DNA from: Ignavibacteria bacterium CG1_02_37_35
GTDB lineage: Bacteria > Bacteroidota > Ignavibacteria > Ignavibacteriales > Ignavibacteriaceae
Assembly (NCBI GenBank): GCA_001871325.1
Contig: MNVA01000086.1
Span: forward strand, 1-36,631
Direction of reading: 5' to 3'
DNA: 36,631 nt
Below the pieces are notes generated by a model, which worked only from the letters and a program-made list of their open reading frames with translations, was not told where the DNA came from and made no database searches. The stretch's first letter is position 1, and every line of letters starts with the position of its first letter. A program made the translations under genes and the position numbers. Positions 2 through 29,290 of this stretch are shown in pieces.

Positions 2-1201
2 GATAAAGTTTGCGATGCCATTTCGGACGGCGTGTTAGACGCCATTTATGTGCAAGACCCCAAAGCCCGCGTAGCCTGCGAAACGTTAGTTACAACCGGA
101 CTCGTAGTCGTTGCCGGTGAAGTAACTACTACCGCTTATGTTGATATTCAAGCCGTTGTCCGCAACACGGTAAAAAATATTGGCTATACAAAAGGCGAGT
201 ATATGTTCTCTTACGATTCATGCGGAGTTTTAAATGCAATCCATTCACAATCTCCGGACATCGCGCAAGGTGTTGACGAAGGCAAAGGTCTTCATAAAGA
301 ACAAGGCGCCGGCGATCAAGGAATGATGTTCGGTTACGCGTGCGATCAATCCGCAGATTATATGCCGTTAACTTTAGAGTATTCACATAAGCTCGTAAAA
401 AAATTAGCTGACATCCGCAAAAAGCGACCGAAGTTAATGCCTTACCTTCGTCCAGATGCAAAATCTCAAGTAACGATTGAATATGATGAAGTTACACGCA
501 AACCTTTACGCGTTGATGCGGTTGTAATTTCCACCCAACATGATGATAATGTTAATCAAAAGAAAATTGAAGCTGACATGAAGAAATACGTTATCCCCAA
601 CGTAATTCCGACAAAATATCTCGATAAAAAAACCAAATACTATGTTAACCCAACAGGGAAATTTGTTATCGGCGGACCGCACGGAGACAGCGGTTTAACC
701 GGAAGAAAAATTATTGTTGATTCTTACGGCGGATGGGGCGCTCACGGCGGCGGAGCTTTTTCCGGCAAAGACCCTTCCAAAGTTGATAGAAGCGCTGCGT
801 ATGCCGCAAGACATATCGCAAAAAATTTAGTCGCCGCTAAATTAACAAAAGAATGTTTGGTCCAAGTTTCTTATGCTATCGGTGTTGCCGAGCCGATGTC
901 TATCTTTGTAAATACTTATGGAACCGGTGTTGCTTCAGATGCCGAACTTTCTAAAATGATCCGGAAAGTTGTTCCGATGACTCCGAAAGCGATCATCGAC
1001 AGATTGAAACTTCGCAACCCGATTTATATTGCAACTTCTTCATACGGTCACTTCGGCAGAAAATATGAAAAGGATGCTAAGATAAAAGTTATCGTTGGTG
1101 AAGAAAACGGTAAACCAAAATTTGTTGAAAGGACTGTCGATTTATTCACATGGGAACAATTAGATTTGGTTCCGCTGTTTAAAGAATATATAAAGAAGTA
1201 A
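2..1201 (+). CDS. metK: S-adenosylmethionine synthetase (5' partial)
   Basis: Makes S-adenosylmethionine from ATP and methionine in the cytoplasm. The open frame runs to the first base of the window: codons upstream of the GTG at 32 read [10 protein letters not shown], the conserved N-terminal MetK segment, so that GTG is internal and the true start lies outside the window. Family signatures are clear: [12 protein letters not shown], then [13 protein letters not shown] and [17 protein letters not shown], the ATP/phosphate-binding loops. About 400 residues remain, so only a short N-terminal piece is missing. It ends in TAA two to three bases before an inverted-repeat element; ahcY follows downstream, the usual SAM-cycle pairing. 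Confidence 0.97.
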
Positions 1202-1727
1202 CTCTTAATCTTAATCATAATCGTATTCTTAATCTTCTTCTGTTTTAAGTAACCGGAAGGTTTTGATTAAACCGTCGAAAAAGCAAATGATTTATTTTGA
1301 TCACGAAAAATTAAACGTGTATCAAGCCTCTTTAGAATTCACTAATTGGCTTGAATCGATTTTTCCAAAAGTTGATAAAAATTTATCTGTTAGAAATCAA
1401 CTTGAAAGAGCGTCAACTTCGATTCCTCTCAATATTGCAGAAGGAAATGGAAAGTATACAGCTAATGACAGATGCAAATTCTTTGATATTGCTCGTGGTT
1501 CGGCTTTGGAATGTGCTAGTTGTCTTGATGTCCTGGTCAGGAAGAAAAAACTAACCGAAGCAGAAATTGTCTTTGGAAAGGAAATTCTTAGAAATATAGT
1601 ATCGATGCTGATCGGATTAATAAAAAACAATTCTGATCGATTGCATGAACCGGAAAATGATTATTCAAAGGAGATGCTTTGATTAAGAATAAGAATAAGA
1701 ATAAGATTATGATTATGATTAAGATAT
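1202..1727. mobile_element. Putative cassette: four-helix-bundle gene between inverted hexad arrays
   Basis: Seen directly: the left arm (1204-1231) and right arm (1696-1723) are reverse complements over 28 bases with two mismatches. Both arms are built from roughly 6-bp units such as TTAATC/GATTAA and TTATTC/GAATAA. The right arm array starts on the stop codon of the enclosed gene and the left arm starts just after the metK stop. The element separates metK from ahcY. Similar S23-type genes occur as intervening sequences in bacterial 23S rRNA genes, also bounded by long complementary ends. That this is a mobile or once-mobile unit is inference; no target-site duplication could be identified with confidence. 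Confidence 0.45.
1263..1682 (+). CDS. Four-helix-bundle protein, S23/IVS-encoded family
   Basis: Small, all-helical protein of the family known from 23S rRNA intervening sequences (S23 proteins), related to the Avd accessory proteins of diversity-generating retroelements. The pattern fits: FDHEKLNVYQ near the N-terminus, LERASTSIPLNIAEG in helix 2, then FFDIARGSALECASCLDVL in helix 3. The length of about 130 residues is normal. The biochemical role of stand-alone members is not established. The start is uncertain: TTG at 1263 has GGAAGG just upstream but only 2 bp away, while ATG at 1287 has no clear ribosome-binding site. The gene sits inside inverted repeat arrays, and its stop codon overlaps the right array. 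Confidence 0.85.
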   Translation: MIKPSKKQMIYFDHEKLNVYQASLEFTNWLESIFPKVDKNLSVRNQLERASTSIPLNIAEGNGKYTANDRCKFFDIARGSALECASCLDVLVRKKKLTEAEIVFGKEILRNIVSMLIGLIKNNSDRLHEPENDYSKEML

Positions 1728-1769
1728 AAGAAATATTTCAAACGTTTATAAATATAATAAAGGAAAAAA

Positions 1770-3086
1770 ATGAGTTACGAAGTAGAAACCAAAAAACTTC
1801 CCTATAAAGTAAAAGATATTTCTCTTGCCGAATGGGGACGCAAAGAGATTGAATTAGCCGAAGCGGAAATGCCCGGCTTAATGTCTTTACGCGATCAATA
1901 TAGAGCAACGAAGCCGTTAAAAGGCGCGCGCATTGCCGGTTGTTTGCACATGACAATCCAAACTGCCGTCTTAATTGAAACATTGGTTGAACTCGGCGCA
2001 GAAGTTCAGTGGTCGTCGTGTAATATTTTTTCAACGCAAGACCACGCCGCCGCCGCAATTGCCGCCGCGGGAGTTCCTGTTTACGCTTGGAAAGGTATGA
2101 ACGCTGAAGAATTCGATTGGTGCATTGAGCAGACACTTTATTTTAAAGATAGGCAGCCGTTGAATTTAATTCTTGATGACGGCGGCGATTTAACAAATAT
2201 GGTTCTTGATAAATATCCCGAAATGGTAAAAGGCATAAAAGGATTAAGCGAAGAAACCACCACCGGCGTTCACAGACTTTACGAAAGAATGAACAACGGA
2301 ACGCTTCCTCTCCCGGCTATCAACGTAAACGATTCGGTTACAAAATCTAAATTCGATAATAAATACGGTTGCCGCGAATCTTTAGTTGATGCAATCCGCC
2401 GTGCGACAGATCTAATGCTTGCCGGTAAAGTTGCCGTTGTTGCCGGTTACGGTGATGTTGGCAAAGGTTCGGCTGAATCATTAAAGAATAATCATGTCCG
2501 CGTAATCGTTACGGAAGTTGATCCGATCTGTGCGCTGCAAGCTGCGATGGAAGGATACGAAGTTAAGAAAATGGTTGATGCGGTTAAGGAAGCCGACATT
2601 GTTGTAACCACTACCGGAAATATGAAAATTGTTACCGGCGAACATTTTAAACTGATGAAAGACAAAACCGTTGTCTGCAACATCGGACATTTTGATACCG
2701 AAATTGATATGGCTTGGTTGAACAAAAATTATGGTAACACCAAAAACACAATCAAACCGCAAGTTGATAAATACACAATTGATGGAAAAGACATCATCGT
2801 TTTAGCTGAAGGGAGATTGGTAAATCTCGGCTGTGCAACGGGACATCCCTCTTATGTAATGTCAAACTCTTTCACCAACCAAACACTGGCTCAACTTGAG
2901 CTTTGGAATCATTCAGACAAATACGAAAACAAAGTTTATACTTTGCCGAAACATTTGGATGAAATGGTTGCACGGTTACACCTTGCAAAAATCGGTGTTG
3001 TACTTGATACGCTTACCGAAGAACAAGCAAAATATATCGGCGTTAAGGTTGAAGGTCCTTACAAGCCGGACTATTACCGATATTGA
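1770..3086 (+). CDS. ahcY: Adenosylhomocysteinase
   Basis: Hydrolyses S-adenosylhomocysteine to adenosine and homocysteine, relieving product inhibition of SAM-dependent methyltransferases. Full length at 438 residues. The Rossmann NAD-binding loop reads [12 protein letters not shown] near residue 220, and the signature [20 protein letters not shown] lies around residue 350. The C-terminus ends KPDYYRY as in the family. ATG at 1770 follows AAAGGA with normal spacing. With metK upstream it forms a SAM-recycling pair interrupted by the four-helix-bundle element, and it is closed by a strong hairpin terminator. Confidence 0.97.
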
Positions 3087-3110
3087 TCTTCTTCATTTTC
3101 ATAAAAAGAA

Positions 3111-3141
3111 AAAGGCTGAGTTGGTTGCTCAGCCTTTTTTA
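3111..3141 (+). terminator. Rho-independent terminator after ahcY (likely bidirectional)
   Basis: A 10-bp stem AAAGGCTGAG / CTCAGCCTTT with a 7-nt loop is followed by a T run. It lies 24 bp after the ahcY stop. A-rich sequence on the other side gives a T run on the minus strand too, so it could also end the converging ATPase gene, whose stop is 77 bp away. Confidence 0.9.
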
Positions 3142-3217
3142 TTTGTAATCCACTGTATTATGAGAACATCGAATTAAAGCTGGCACGCAACGCGAAATTT
3201 TATTGACCAGATCGAGA

Positions 3218-4654
3218 TTAATCAAACAGCAAAAGAAAAATTGGAAGCGGGATGTAAAAGATATTTTCTTTAGGTCCATAATCCGACCATTGTTTGGAAA
3301 CCACTATTGCTTGCGCCGAATTTGGATACTGCTTAACAAAATTTAGAATTCCGGAGAGATAACTCTTTTCAATTTTATTCCGGTATTTAACTTCGACCGG
3401 TAAATAGCGGTTAGGGGCAATGTGAATAACAAAATCAACTTCGCCATTACGCTCCCGGAAATAATCCATCTGGATAGTTCCGCGCCACTTTTTGAGCGCA
3501 AGAAATACGAGGTTTTCAGCATACAAGCCGAGCATTGTTTCATCTTTCAGCAACGTATCCGTTAATCTAAGAACTGCATTTCGGAGAGCAAGATCAACAA
3601 GATAAAACTTCATCATCCCCTTACGCACACGCAAAGCGCCGGAGCGGAACTTAGAAATTTTATAAACGAGATCGGTCATCTCAAGCAAAGGAATATATTT
3701 ATCAATTTGCGCCGACTTCACATCGGTTTCTTGAGAAATTGATTGAACGGCAATTTCGCGACCGGGCATTTCGAGCAGAGAAATATAAAATCGTTTTAAC
3801 AATTCCGGTTTGCGGAACTCGGCGGCAAGAATTAAATCTTCGTAGATTACTTTTTTAACCTGGTTATCGTAAAGATATTCTTGTTTGGAAACCCAGGTTG
3901 GAAGATTCCACACTTCAGGAAAACCCCCTTCAAGAAAATAGCGGTTGAGAAGAGCGTCAAGTTCCGCTTTTAATTCAAGAGAAAGGTCACTTAGAGAAAC
4001 AACCTCTGTAGAAATTTGAGGATCGCCGGTAATCATTCCCTGGATTGTTTTTCCTTGTTTGTAGAGCGAATTAATTTCTGAAAGGAAAGTCGGTTTATGC
4101 TGAAATGAATAAAGAGCAAATTCACGGAACGAAAAAGGAAGCAGGTGGTAATCTTTAACCCTGCCGAGCAAACTTTCCCTTGTCTTTTTAAAAATAGGTG
4201 AAGAAGCTGAACCGGAGATAATAACTTTAGCGGGAAATTTTAGATCGTAATATTTCTTCAAGTAAAGTTCCCATCGCTCAAGACGTTGAATCTCATCAAG
4301 GAATAGGTAAGTTACTCCTTCTCCTTTTTTGTTTGAGGCTATTTTGAAAAGGTAATCAATAAGATTATCAAGATTCATCTTGCTCGAAATTAAAGCAGGG
4401 TCATCAAATGAATAATAGATCAAATGTTTTGGATTAATTCCGTCATTAATCAACTTTTGAATAATCTGTTGAAGAAGTGTGGATTTCCCGATTCTACGGG
4501 GACCCGTAATAGAAAGTATTTGAGGAATAGTGTTCAGGTCCTCAATTAGAATGTAATACAGCGGTCTCCTGAAAGAAGGAACGCTTGAAAAAGCCGATTC
4601 CTTATTTGACCACCATGGATTATACGGAAGTAATATTTGGTCTAAGTTATTCAT
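3218..4654 (-). CDS. AAA-family ATPase with DUF4143 C-terminal domain
   Basis: Predicted ATP-binding protein of the AAA_14/DUF4143 group, a widespread family with no settled function. Walker A reads GPRRIGKST (residues 51-59) and Walker B YLFLDEIQ (about 114-121). The C-terminal part contains NGEVDFVIHI followed by LPVEVKYRNK, the D...ExK spacing of a PD-(D/E)XK-like fold seen in DUF4143 proteins. The length of 478 residues is slightly above the common 380-450. It is a single-gene unit with no obvious partner; its start lies 10 bp from a perfect 11-bp inverted repeat that may be its promoter/operator. Such genes are often strain-variable, and nothing nearby tells its role. Confidence 0.85.
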   Translation of the reverse strand: MNNLDQILLPYNPWWSNKESAFSSVPSFRRPLYYILIEDLNTIPQILSITGPRRIGKSTLLQQIIQKLINDGINPKHLIYYSFDDPALISSKMNLDNLIDYLFKIASNKKGEGVTYLFLDEIQRLERWELYLKKYYDLKFPAKVIISGSASSPIFKKTRESLLGRVKDYHLLPFSFREFALYSFQHKPTFLSEINSLYKQGKTIQGMITGDPQISTEVVSLSDLSLELKAELDALLNRYFLEGGFPEVWNLPTWVSKQEYLYDNQVKKVIYEDLILAAEFRKPELLKRFYISLLEMPGREIAVQSISQETDVKSAQIDKYIPLLEMTDLVYKISKFRSGALRVRKGMMKFYLVDLALRNAVLRLTDTLLKDETMLGLYAENLVFLALKKWRGTIQMDYFRERNGEVDFVIHIAPNRYLPVEVKYRNKIEKSYLSGILNFVKQYPNSAQAIVVSKQWSDYGPKENIFYIPLPIFLLLFD

Positions 4655-4664
4655 TTTTCAACAC

Positions 4665-4702
4665 TTGTAAATTATTACTGTTATAATATGCATAATTTAC
4701 AA
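4665..4702 (-). promoter_or_regulatory. Perfect 11-bp inverted repeat upstream of the ATPase gene
   Basis: TTGTAAATTAT (4665-4675) and ATAATTTACAA (4692-4702) are exact reverse complements separated by 16 bp containing a TATAAT-like string. The proximal arm ends 10 bp before the ATPase start codon at 4654. The geometry suits an operator overlapping the promoter, or a stem at the mRNA 5' end. No other gene starts here. Confidence 0.5.
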
Positions 4703-4849
4703 TTTACCGGCAAGTTATTTCTGTTAAACAAGTTAAGTGGTATGTTAAATAGTTAGCAAAAATCCACCGCGGCGGACTGCGCAACCCGGACAAAAACATA
4801 TGAAGTAAAACTTTATTTTGAATAACAAGTTTCTTTTCTTATATCCTCA

Positions 4850-6001
4850 TTAGCTACCGCGTGTTGCATTAATTAATTTTGGTAAAGTTGACGGAAATAT
4901 TTTTATAAAATTGACAGCGGAATTTCTGAATTTACTTTGAAGTATTATCTTTTGAATGAATGAAGCGTAATTTAATCTTTTCCTAAAAAGTTTATGCCAG
5001 CAATTTTTATATGTTCGTTCAGTTTCTTCGACAGGTAAATTTTCATTTCTTGATTTAACAAAAACATCTGATATGAGCTTAGCCGACTGAAGAGCCATTC
5101 CGATTCCGTCACCCGCAAGCGGGGCGATAACACCGGCAGCATCGCCAATCATAAAAACGCCATTCTCAACTAAATTTCTTTCCCCGAAATAGATATTAAC
5201 AATTCCATAAGTCTGAAGTTCATTTATTTGTTTGAATGAATTTTCCGCAAAGATATTTTGAAAACTTTTATTCCTGGAAATAAATTCAATAAGATTTTGC
5301 CGGGATGAATTTTTCAGGGTTATTCGATTTTCAAGAAAGCATAATGTAATGGTATCATTATCTACCTCGTTCACTCCGCAATAAATTCCGTTAGCTACGT
5401 AAATACGAATTTCATTCGGCAAAATATTTTTTAATCTTGATTTAGCAAGATGAAATTTTATTCCGTTAAGAAATGATTTATGTCGGGCGAAATTCCGATT
5501 TAAAGTTTTATCAAGAATATTCTGTTTGCCATAAGCAGCGATTACATTTTTACTTAGAATATCAACGTTCAAGCCATCTTGATTTTGCGCTGATATTAAA
5601 AAATCTACACCGGATTTTTTAATTTCGGAAATCTCATACGGTTGGAATACTTTTACTTTTTTACTGCTTGCTGCGTTAAGAAGTAAATTGTCAAAGACCG
5701 ATCTTCTTAAACCGTAAGCAGTGAAATTAAAATTCGCTGAAAACTGTTTACCGTTGTCATTGATAAACCTAAATGTGTTAATAGGGTTTGGATGAAGTGA
5801 TATAAATTTATCGAAAAGATTTAATTCCTTAATAATTGCAATAACTTCTTTGGAAAGAAATTCACCGCACAAAGTTTCCCTCGGAAAAATTTTCTTTTCA
5901 AATAAACAGACTTTAAATCCATAATCAGCAAGATAAATTGCAGCAGTAGAGCCGGCTGGACCTCCGCCGATGATAGCGACGTCATAATTTTCTAAACTCA
6001 T
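4850..6001 (-). CDS. FAD-dependent oxidoreductase (geranylgeranyl-reductase/monooxygenase-like)
   Basis: Flavoprotein of the PHBH/geranylgeranyl reductase superfamily. The N-terminal dinucleotide fold VAIIGGGPAGSTAA (residues 8-21) binds FAD, and a second FAD motif GDAAGVIAPLAGDGIG lies near residue 290. RETLCGEFLS (41-50) is typical of these reductases. It is the last gene of a coupled triad: its ATG overlaps the methyltransferase stop by four bases (ATGA). By analogy to the Streptomyces SrsA-SrsB-SrsC pathway it may hydroxylate or oxidise the polyketide product, for example a resorcinol to a quinone. A C=C reductase role is the main alternative. Confidence 0.85.
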   Translation of the reverse strand: MSLENYDVAIIGGGPAGSTAAIYLADYGFKVCLFEKKIFPRETLCGEFLSKEVIAIIKELNLFDKFISLHPNPINTFRFINDNGKQFSANFNFTAYGLRRSVFDNLLLNAASSKKVKVFQPYEISEIKKSGVDFLISAQNQDGLNVDILSKNVIAAYGKQNILDKTLNRNFARHKSFLNGIKFHLAKSRLKNILPNEIRIYVANGIYCGVNEVDNDTITLCFLENRITLKNSSRQNLIEFISRNKSFQNIFAENSFKQINELQTYGIVNIYFGERNLVENGVFMIGDAAGVIAPLAGDGIGMALQSAKLISDVFVKSRNENLPVEETERTYKNCWHKLFRKRLNYASFIQKIILQSKFRNSAVNFIKIFPSTLPKLINATRGS

Positions 6002-6693
6002 AAAATCAAATTTGACTTGTTTTTATAAACAACAATGCACCATCTGAAAGCCCACTTTCGCTTGATTATATAATTACAAGCTAAATTAGTCAGTATATTT
6101 TTAAGCTCCCTTTTTGTAAAGCCTCTTCTTACGGAAAGGGGCGCATCATTTTTTACCATTTTACTTTTAGAGAAGAAATACGTTAACAGTTTAATTCCTG
6201 TAAGCGCAAAAATTGAACGACGCAAATCATTAATAATTAAACCAAAGCGGGACAGGAGCAAAAGGTTTTCTAAAATATTTCTAATTTCTTTTTCTTTAAA
6301 ATGATGAAGGAATAAAGAGGCGTGAACAAAATCGAAGTGACCGAATTTAAATGGGAGAGTTTTTACATCGCCGCAGACAACCGCTACTTCGGAAGATTTT
6401 TTTAGAAATTCGCATACTCGTTTGTTTCTAACCAACCCGGTGATTTTCATTTTTTTATTATTTCTTCTCAAAGCAATCATAACATCTGAAGCCCCGCTGC
6501 CGACATCCAAAACTTCTAAATCAAGCGACTCATGTTTTTTCCTGATCAAACTTTTCAAACCTGTTTTAGAAGTTGAGATGCCCCCAAGAAATTTGTTGAT
6601 CAATTTTAATTCTTTAAGAGCTTCGTCAACTCTTTCATCTTCAATAGAAAAATCATCCATAATTTCCGGTGCATCGCTTCTTCTCAAAAACAT
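5998..6693 (-). CDS. SAM-dependent class I methyltransferase
   Basis: Methyltransferase with SAM-binding motif I VLDVGSGASD (about residues 61-70), an acidic residue region CGDVKTLPF, and FDFVHASLFLHHF as the post-II motif, the UbiE/Methyltransf_11 pattern. The start chosen is ATG at 6693, coupled to the polyketide synthase stop as TAATG. A longer frame to 6756 would lie inside the upstream gene and adds a non-conserved stretch. It likely methylates the type III polyketide product on oxygen or carbon. About 231 residues, normal for the fold. Confidence 0.85.
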   Translation of the reverse strand: MFLRRSDAPEIMDDFSIEDERVDEALKELKLINKFLGGISTSKTGLKSLIRKKHESLDLEVLDVGSGASDVMIALRRNNKKMKITGLVRNKRVCEFLKKSSEVAVVCGDVKTLPFKFGHFDFVHASLFLHHFKEKEIRNILENLLLLSRFGLIINDLRRSIFALTGIKLLTYFFSKSKMVKNDAPLSVRRGFTKRELKNILTNLACNYIIKRKWAFRWCIVVYKNKSNLIL

Positions 6694-28229: not shown

Positions 28230-28260
28230 AGTAAAAAGTGGAAAGTAGAAAGTAGAAAGT
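28230..28260 (+). repeat. Heptad array after the GH-A gene
   Basis: AGTAAAA, AGTGGAA, AGTAGAA, AGTAGAA and AGT run in strict 7-bp register, starting 5 bp after the stop codon at 28225. There is no matching opposite arm beyond a short TTTCTT. Confidence 0.6.
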
Positions 28261-29040: not shown

Positions 29041-29060
29041 CTGAACATATCGCTAGAATT

Positions 29061-29142
29061 CTTAATCTTAATCATAATCTTTTTCTTCCTCTTAATCCGG
29101 TGAAAAACTGGATTAAGATTATGCATAGGAGTAAGATTAAGG
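29061..29142. repeat. Solo inverted hexad array (no gene)
   Basis: The left arm at 29061-29098 begins with the same 19 bases as the metK-side arm at 1204-1222. After an 11-base loop the right arm (29110-29142) pairs through TCTTAATCC/GGATTAAGA near the loop and CTTAATCTTA/TAAGATTAAG at the base. It begins 20 bp after the esterase stop. It looks like an empty counterpart of the 1202-1727 element. Confidence 0.65.
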
Positions 29143-29290
29143 AGGAATATAACACCAAACATCCGCGAAGCGCGAATGCAATTGTTGGGAAGGAAAAACC
29201 TTTATAAAGAGTATTCGGGAGAAAAATTGTAACTTATTTCTATCGAGGTGAAATTTCCTTATTTTGCATTCAAAATTAAACACAGTCCCG

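What the first reader, a model, noticed from the sequence alone, without database searches (positions are those of the whole stretch)
1202..1727. Four-helix-bundle gene enclosed by inverted hexad arrays between metK and ahcY
The arms (1204-1231 and 1696-1723) are 28-base reverse complements with two mismatches, made of drifting 6-bp units. The right array starts on the stop codon of the gene. Related genes in 23S rRNA intervening sequences also sit within complementary ends. This suggests a compact mobile unit that inserts just after gene stops and tolerates transcription by forming a stem. Inference: the protein or RNA helps its movement or processing.
Basis: partly seen in the sequence, partly recalled or inferred. 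Interest (0 to 1): 0.72.

Follow-up and report, generated by a model that had tools for sequence, protein, structure and literature searches.

The report
S23p gene elements with heptad arms
A tiny gene for a ring-forming four-helix protein sits between two mirror-image runs of a short DNA word; the same layout, each gene lineage with its own word, surrounds this gene family across many bacterial phyla, and some copies are present in one species and missing in its sister, so it looks like an overlooked class of miniature mobile element.

Summary
Arms 1204-1231/1696-1723 are 28-nt reverse complements with 2 mismatches (39 nt with 4), in 6-bp units, around a PF05635 (S23p/23S_rRNA_IVP) gene between metK and ahcY. 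It is also general. Of 212 S23p genes from many phyla, 119 have inverted flanking arms against 19 of 619 neighbouring genes (p ~ 1e-63), usually in ~7-bp units, as do 8/8 cyanobacterial plasmid copies. Each protein lineage has its own unit: unlinked copies with >=70% identical proteins share the unit in 7/9 cases (baseline 2%). Gene-less arrays of the same units are dispersed in the genome. Borders abut stop codons (median 5 bp). In 24 relatives the metK-ahcY gap lacks the gene; the congener holds a different hairpin there. In another genus two sites are filled in some species and empty in others. 'Tolerates transcription by forming a stem' is not: no G.U bias, and unit order is not mirrored. 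I propose that the S23p ring binds its cognate repeats, as a TRAP-like RNP or ssDNP. How it moves is unknown. The layout may unite 23S intervening sequences, intergenic heptamers and stray cas-operon S23p genes.

The parts
1203..1241 (-). left array, 6-bp units (G-rich word reads on the minus strand); core arm 1204-1231
1263..1682 (+). S23p / 23S_rRNA_IVP (PF05635) four-helix-bundle gene; TTG 1263 or in-frame ATG 1287; stop TGA 1680-1682
   Evidence: Pfam 76.1 bits; AF2 model pLDDT 88.5 and PDB matches 2RLD, 2GSC
1681..1732 (+). right array, 6-bp units, begins on the stop codon; core arm 1696-1723
2..1201 (+). metK, upstream host gene; the element starts 2 nt after its stop
   Evidence: adjacency to ahcY kept in 24 relatives
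1770..3086 (+). ahcY, downstream host gene
29058..29143 (.). gene-less hairpin made of the same hexads, just behind another stop codon: proposed derivative of the element
28231..28260 (+). solo AAAGTRG heptad array behind a stop codon; same unit as the arms of S23p copies L001 and L003 elsewhere in this genome

Best explanation
The region is one copy of a miniature mobile element of about 0.5 kb: an S23p-family (PF05635) gene between inverted arrays of a short unit (6 bp here, about 7 bp in most of the family) that belongs to that protein lineage. Shown: gene and arms are inherited, diverge and appear or disappear together; they sit directly behind stop codons; gene-less arrays of the same units are dispersed in the genome. 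Inferred: the S23p ring (same fold as the DGR protein Avd, which works in an RNA complex) recognises its own repeat units in single-stranded RNA or DNA, perhaps one unit per subunit, as TRAP does with its tandem triplets; the arms and dispersed hairpins are its binding sites and mark the element and its derivatives for copying or insertion. Unknown: which enzyme cuts and joins; S23p has no recognisable nuclease, so a host or trans-acting activity is assumed.
For: Arms around 119/212 S23p genes vs 19/619 control genes, p=7.7e-64, plus 8/8 cyanobacterial plasmid copies. Period 7 in 48/72; fixed polarity: left array G-rich in 61 vs 10, right array C-rich in 83 vs 10. Unit follows the protein lineage: Mantel p=0.0015; 7/9 unlinked pairs with >=70% protein identity share the unit vs 2% baseline, including a cross-phylum pair. 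Dispersed gene-less arrays: hexad 62 hits vs 1 in the control pattern; AAAGTAG 100 hits in this genome, 13 in the congener, 7 in 39 other relatives together. Borders a median 5 bp from stop codons. Presence/absence between close relatives: metK-ahcY, sites A and B in genus g69; same site with a different S23p element. Selection on the protein: dN/dS mostly 0.02-0.06 in orthologous copies.
Against: No transposition event was observed, no target duplication identified, and no cutting enzyme is known. Many copies are old, orthologous and under purifying selection, which also fits a resident host gene. About 44% of S23p genes fall below the arm threshold. RNA or DNA binding to the heptads is not tested. 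The window copy has reversed array polarity relative to its gene, so polarity is not absolute. Several presence/absence cases could be losses rather than gains.
Confidence: 0.6

Rival explanations
1. Intervening-sequence model: the arms pair in the transcript, RNase III cuts the stem, and the element is tolerated in operons because it is processed out as RNA.
For: Coxiella 23S IVS with S23p is excised by RNase III inside its terminal stem (PMC4990558); elements lie between co-directional genes in 94/112 cases vs 581/838 for other genes.
Against: No G.U over A.C bias, unit order not mirrored, solo arrays without a partner.
Confidence: 0.15
2. REP/RAYT-type passenger: a Y1 (IS200-like) transposase in trans recognises the arrays as hairpins and moves them; S23p is cargo or accessory.
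For: S23p and Y1 copy numbers correlate over 41 genomes (rho 0.62, p=2e-5); layout resembles REPINs around RAYT genes.
Against: 24 Y1 loci show other, mostly G+C-rich palindromes and no heptad arrays; the unit follows the S23p lineage, not a Y1 gene. The correlation may only reflect general mobile-element load.
Confidence: 0.12
3. Static host regulator: S23p is a resident RNA-binding regulator and the arrays are its operator sites; no mobility.
For: dN/dS 0.02-0.06 and long-term orthology; arrays sit close to gene ends.
Against: Empty sites, element exchange at the same site, cross-phylum copies with the same unit and unrelated flanks.
Confidence: 0.1
4. Reverse-transcriptase-linked (DGR-like) element that moves through an RNA copy.
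For: Avd fold (8UB7, 4DWL); Avd acts with a reverse transcriptase and RNA.
Against: S23p number does not correlate with RT number (rho 0.01); several genomes with 15-20 S23p genes have no RVT_1 match. The apparent DGR Avd of this genome (L015/L323) has no arms.
Confidence: 0.07
5. Chance or an ordinary terminator-like palindrome.
For: Arrays lie behind stop codons.
Against: Shuffles, 619 control genes, fixed polarity and period; arms are separated by a whole gene.
Confidence: 0.01

Closest known systems
23S rRNA intervening sequences (IVS) encoding S23p (Coxiella; PMC4990558)
   Same: S23p ORF between complementary ends of similar length; tandem heptamers (GACAGAT) in front of the start; total about 0.43 kb.
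   Different: The elements here lie between protein genes, are multicopy, each lineage has its own unit, and gene-less derivatives are dispersed; RNA excision is not shown.
REPIN-RAYT systems (from general knowledge)
   Same: A gene flanked by inverted repeats whose relatives are dispersed gene-less in the genome.
   Different: S23p is not a Y1 nuclease; repeats are tandem 6-8-bp units, not REP palindromes; RAYT genes of the same genomes have other repeats.
Cyanobacterial STRR heptamers and Xanthomonas/Nostoc G-rich heptamers (PMC4692102), Beggiatoaceae TAACTGA (PMC4679880)
   Same: Tandem 7-bp units, intergenic, between aligned genes, near or overlapping stop codons; in Xanthomonas often as convergent pairs.
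   Different: Those papers link the repeats to no gene; here such units bracket S23p genes.
DGR accessory protein Avd
   Same: Same fold (4DWL target TM 0.85, 8UB7 0.79).
   Different: No adjacent RT, template or variable repeat; the own genome's apparent DGR Avd lacks arms.
TRAP (tryptophan RNA-binding attenuation protein; from general knowledge)
   Same: Proposed principle: a ring protein reading tandem short repeats.
   Different: Unrelated fold and 11-mer; for S23p binding is untested.

Membership tests
S23p / 23S_rRNA_IVP protein family (PF05635) | profile match over the curated cut-off | tested here: met
   76.1 bits vs 33.8
S23p / 23S_rRNA_IVP protein family (PF05635) | four-helix bundle like 2GSC/2RLD | tested here: met
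S23p / 23S_rRNA_IVP protein family (PF05635) | homopentameric ring | not tested
   only the monomer was modelled; ring known for 2GSC (PMC4990558)
23S rRNA intervening sequence | located inside a 23S rRNA gene | tested here: not met
   lies between metK and ahcY; no rRNA match in the window
23S rRNA intervening sequence | complementary ends around an S23p ORF | tested here: met
23S rRNA intervening sequence | excised from RNA by RNase III | not testable with these tools
   needs RNA data
REPIN-RAYT | flanked gene is a Y1 (HUH) transposase | tested here: not met
   gene is PF05635 only
REPIN-RAYT | inverted repeats around the gene with dispersed gene-less relatives | tested here: met
DGR Avd | adjacent reverse transcriptase with template and variable repeats | tested here: not met
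   neighbours are metK and ahcY; the genome's only RVT_1 match is on another contig, C57
intergenic heptamer repeats (STRR / GGGAATC type) | tandem ~7-bp units in intergenic regions near stop codons | tested here: met
   family arms: period 7 dominant, stop distance median 5 bp; the window copy itself has 6-bp units
classical transposon / MITE | target-site duplication and a transposase | tested here: inconclusive
   no transposase in the element; empty-site junctions show no clear duplication, arrays blur the borders

The most novel reading that the evidence does not exclude
S23p elements are a separate class of mobile element with no transposase or reverse transcriptase of their own: a ring protein and its private tandem-repeat word co-diverge as lock and key, words change between lineages, and the protein spreads both its gene and word-only hairpins into stop-codon/start-codon gaps. 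Many intergenic heptamers of cyanobacteria, xanthomonads and Bacteroidota, and the S23p-coding 23S intervening sequences, would be its products.
Probability: 0.4. Interest if true: 0.92.

Novelty: new variant of a known kind. Interest (0 to 1): 0.82.

Why it matters
Three long-standing puzzles would get one testable answer: what the widespread 'four helix bundle / S23 ribosomal protein' genes do, where intergenic heptamer repeats come from, and what 23S intervening sequences are. It predicts a protein-repeat code that can be read from genomes and checked by binding assays. It also warns that guilt-by-association links of S23p to CRISPR-cas or other operons (PMC3936711; here S23p genes between cas6 and cas4 on two plasmids) may just be insertions.

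Tried and rejected
(1) RNA-stem selection: no G.U vs A.C mismatch asymmetry; unit order not mirrored. (2) A universal shape of the heptad: the two least conserved positions are adjacent more than expected on the left (p=0.04) but not on the right (p=0.6), so not claimed. (3) RAYT origin of the arms: 24 Y1 loci show other palindromes and no heptads (a first motif search failed). (4) Reverse transcriptase as partner: no correlation. (5) Chance: shuffles and 619 control genes. (6) Gene-less arrays as relics of the gene: two widely spaced AAAGT pairs (L336, L339) hold no S23p remnant. (7) S23p loci inside rRNA: the eight loci with little ORF cover that were scanned show no rRNA. (8) Xcc0516-like genes on Xanthomonas plasmids: none in the plasmid collection. 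(10) Literature searches for a known link found none in the open-licence library; subscription papers were not searchable.

Full report
OBSERVATION. Window 1204-1231 and 1696-1723 are 28-nt reverse complements with two mismatches; the match runs to 39 nt with four, score 27, while 300 shuffles of the region gave at most 12 and a coarse scan of the window found no second pair of score >=17. TRF sees both as period-6 arrays. The gene between them (1263-1682) is a PF05635 member. Its AF2 model has four long helices, mean pLDDT 88.5, and matches the S23p structures 2RLD and 2GSC and, more weakly, the DGR protein Avd alone and in its reverse-transcriptase complex. The right array starts on the stop codon of the gene; the left one starts 2 nt after the metK stop.

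IT IS A FAMILY TRAIT. The own genome has 17 PF05635 matches, and 36 of 41 genomes in the relatives search (own included) have 1-20 each. I compared each S23p gene with other ORFs from the same loci, scoring the best ungapped inverted repeat within 250 bp on each side. Score >=14: own genome and order 66/105 vs 9/368; wider phylum 10/27 vs 1/32; 80 loci from named records of many phyla (Poribacteria, Chloroflexi, Acidobacteria, deltaproteobacteria, Verrucomicrobia, CPR and others) 43/80 vs 9/219. Together 119/212 vs 19/619, Fisher p=7.7e-64. All 8 cyanobacterial plasmid copies examined have such arms, several near perfect. Some copies under the threshold still show short or interrupted arrays. 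The control ORFs are naive gene calls and some share an array with a neighbouring S23p gene, so the control rate is if anything too high.

ANATOMY. In the first 72 armed copies the arm period is 7 in 48, 8 in 12 and 6 in 5, so the window's hexads are a minority form. On the coding strand the left array is G-rich (G>C in 61, reverse in 10) and the right array C-rich (83 vs 10). The window copy is an exception: its sister copy L011 (78% identical protein, same hexad) has the usual polarity and further hexads beyond it on the right, whereas the window copy has only the two arrays of reversed polarity. Element borders lie a median 5 bp from stop codons and 19 bp from start codons, and both neighbours are co-directional in 94/112 cases against 581/838 for other genes.

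EACH PROTEIN LINEAGE HAS ITS OWN WORD. Protein identity and unit similarity correlate (Mantel p=0.0015). For proteins >=70% identical in loci without shared flanking genes, 7 of 9 pairs share the unit, against 2% of unrelated pairs; the pair L109 (this order) and L264 (Oryzomonas, another phylum) shares GTGAATG with unrelated flanks. Below about 70% identity the units usually differ. Gene and arms therefore travel and diverge together.

GENE-LESS DERIVATIVES. The window itself has a hairpin of the same hexads at 29058-29143 and a solo AAAGTRG array at 28231-28260. Genome-wide the hexad pattern has 62 hits against 1 for the reversed-pattern control, at roughly twenty sites, two of which flank S23p genes. 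The AAAGTAG array, the unit of the S23p copies L001 and L003, has 100 hits in this genome, 13 in the congener and 7 in all 39 other relatives together. Hexad arrays are common in G000, G001, G014 and G029, and in G014 there is again an S23p gene flanked by hexad arrays; whether G001 and G029 hold a hexad-armed gene was not checked.

MOBILITY. metK and ahcY are adjacent in all 24 relatives with an ahcY match, and none has the gene there. The congener G001 (metK 95%, ahcY 96% identical) has instead a gene-less hairpin of a different, heptad-like unit in the same gap. In genus g69 (another family of the phylum) site A is filled in G064, G129 and G098 but not in G074 and G088 (92% and 88% identical flanks; a small array remains there) or G101. 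Site B is filled in G129, G064, G088 and G074, clean in G098, where the two host genes overlap as ATGA, and holds a short stretch resembling the start of the element in G101. In the filled site B the element supplies a new stop codon for the upstream gene. At two further sites the same gap holds clearly different S23p elements in different congeners. These facts show gain, loss or exchange of whole units between close relatives; they do not show the mechanism, and no clear target duplication was seen.

SELECTION. Close orthologous copies in g69 have dN/dS mostly 0.02-0.06, so the protein works and is kept. A purely parasitic reading is too simple.

MECHANISM. The arms pair because both repeat one unit in opposite directions, not because each base is kept paired: A.C mismatches are about as common as G.U on the coding strand (80 vs 89), and permuting unit order within an arm hardly lowers the match (these tests have limited power because arms are short). 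What is kept is the unit, its polarity and its tie to the protein. This fits a binding-site model. PMC4990558 describes 2GSC as a homopentameric toroid; Avd, of the same fold, sits in a reverse-transcriptase ribonucleoprotein (8UB7). I therefore propose a ring that reads tandem repeats in RNA or ssDNA, like TRAP on its triplets (from general knowledge). This is inference. The enzyme for movement is unknown. Y1 transposase number correlates with S23p number (rho 0.62), reverse transcriptases do not (0.01), but Y1 genes have their own, different repeats.

COMPARISON WITH THE KNOWN. The 23S intervening sequence of Coxiella has a 28-bp terminal stem, an S23p ORF and three GACAGAT heptamers in front of it (PMC4990558). 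Xanthomonas and Nostoc genomes carry many G-rich heptamers between aligned genes, near or overlapping stop codons, in Xanthomonas often as convergent pairs, with no owner gene named (PMC4692102); Xanthomonas campestris is also the source of the S23p structure 2GSC, whose flanks I could not read here. MacGregor's TAACTGA repeats are similar (PMC4679880). S23p genes in cas loci were reported as associated functions (PMC3936711); two of the plasmid copies seen here lie between cas6 and cas4 with heptad arms. I found no paper that joins these, within a library of open-licence papers only.

VERDICT. Observation confirmed; interpretation partly supported and widened. New variant of a known kind (S23p/IVS elements), with a fair chance of being a class of its own.

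Noticed in passing
L323 (G000:C57) 2376-6347: A DGR-like cassette in the own genome: a candidate variable protein, an Avd-like S23p protein (L015), a Y1 transposase and a reverse-transcriptase ORF whose start translates into an Asn-rich copy of the variable region. Its Avd-like gene has no heptad arms.
   Followed up: partly
L048, metK-ahcY gap of the congener G001: A gene-less hairpin of a different heptad-like unit (TGTCAATGGTCAGTAGTCAT / ATGACCACTGACTAATGACA) occupies the gap that holds the S23p element in the window.
   Followed up: partly
L365 and L371 (Pseudanabaena pPg_01, Anabaena pANA02): S23p genes with heptad arms lie between cas6 and cas4, so their reported association with CRISPR-cas may reflect insertion.
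   Followed up: partly
L073, L074, L098 (own genome): Hexad hairpins nested inside a second inverted sequence resembling ACTAACTCAC-TTACGCA, possibly another repeat family.
   Followed up: no
L087, L093 (own genome): Solo hexad arrays next to a further repeated inverted sequence (AATATCGAATATTGAACAAG...), which also flanks the weak S23p match L017.
   Followed up: no
41 genomes of the order: S23p and Y1 transposase copy numbers correlate (rho 0.62); cause unknown.
   Followed up: partly
L328 (G000:C203:9155-9329): An expanded solo AAAGTAG array of about 25 units next to an ORF end, among the longest seen in this genome.
   Followed up: no
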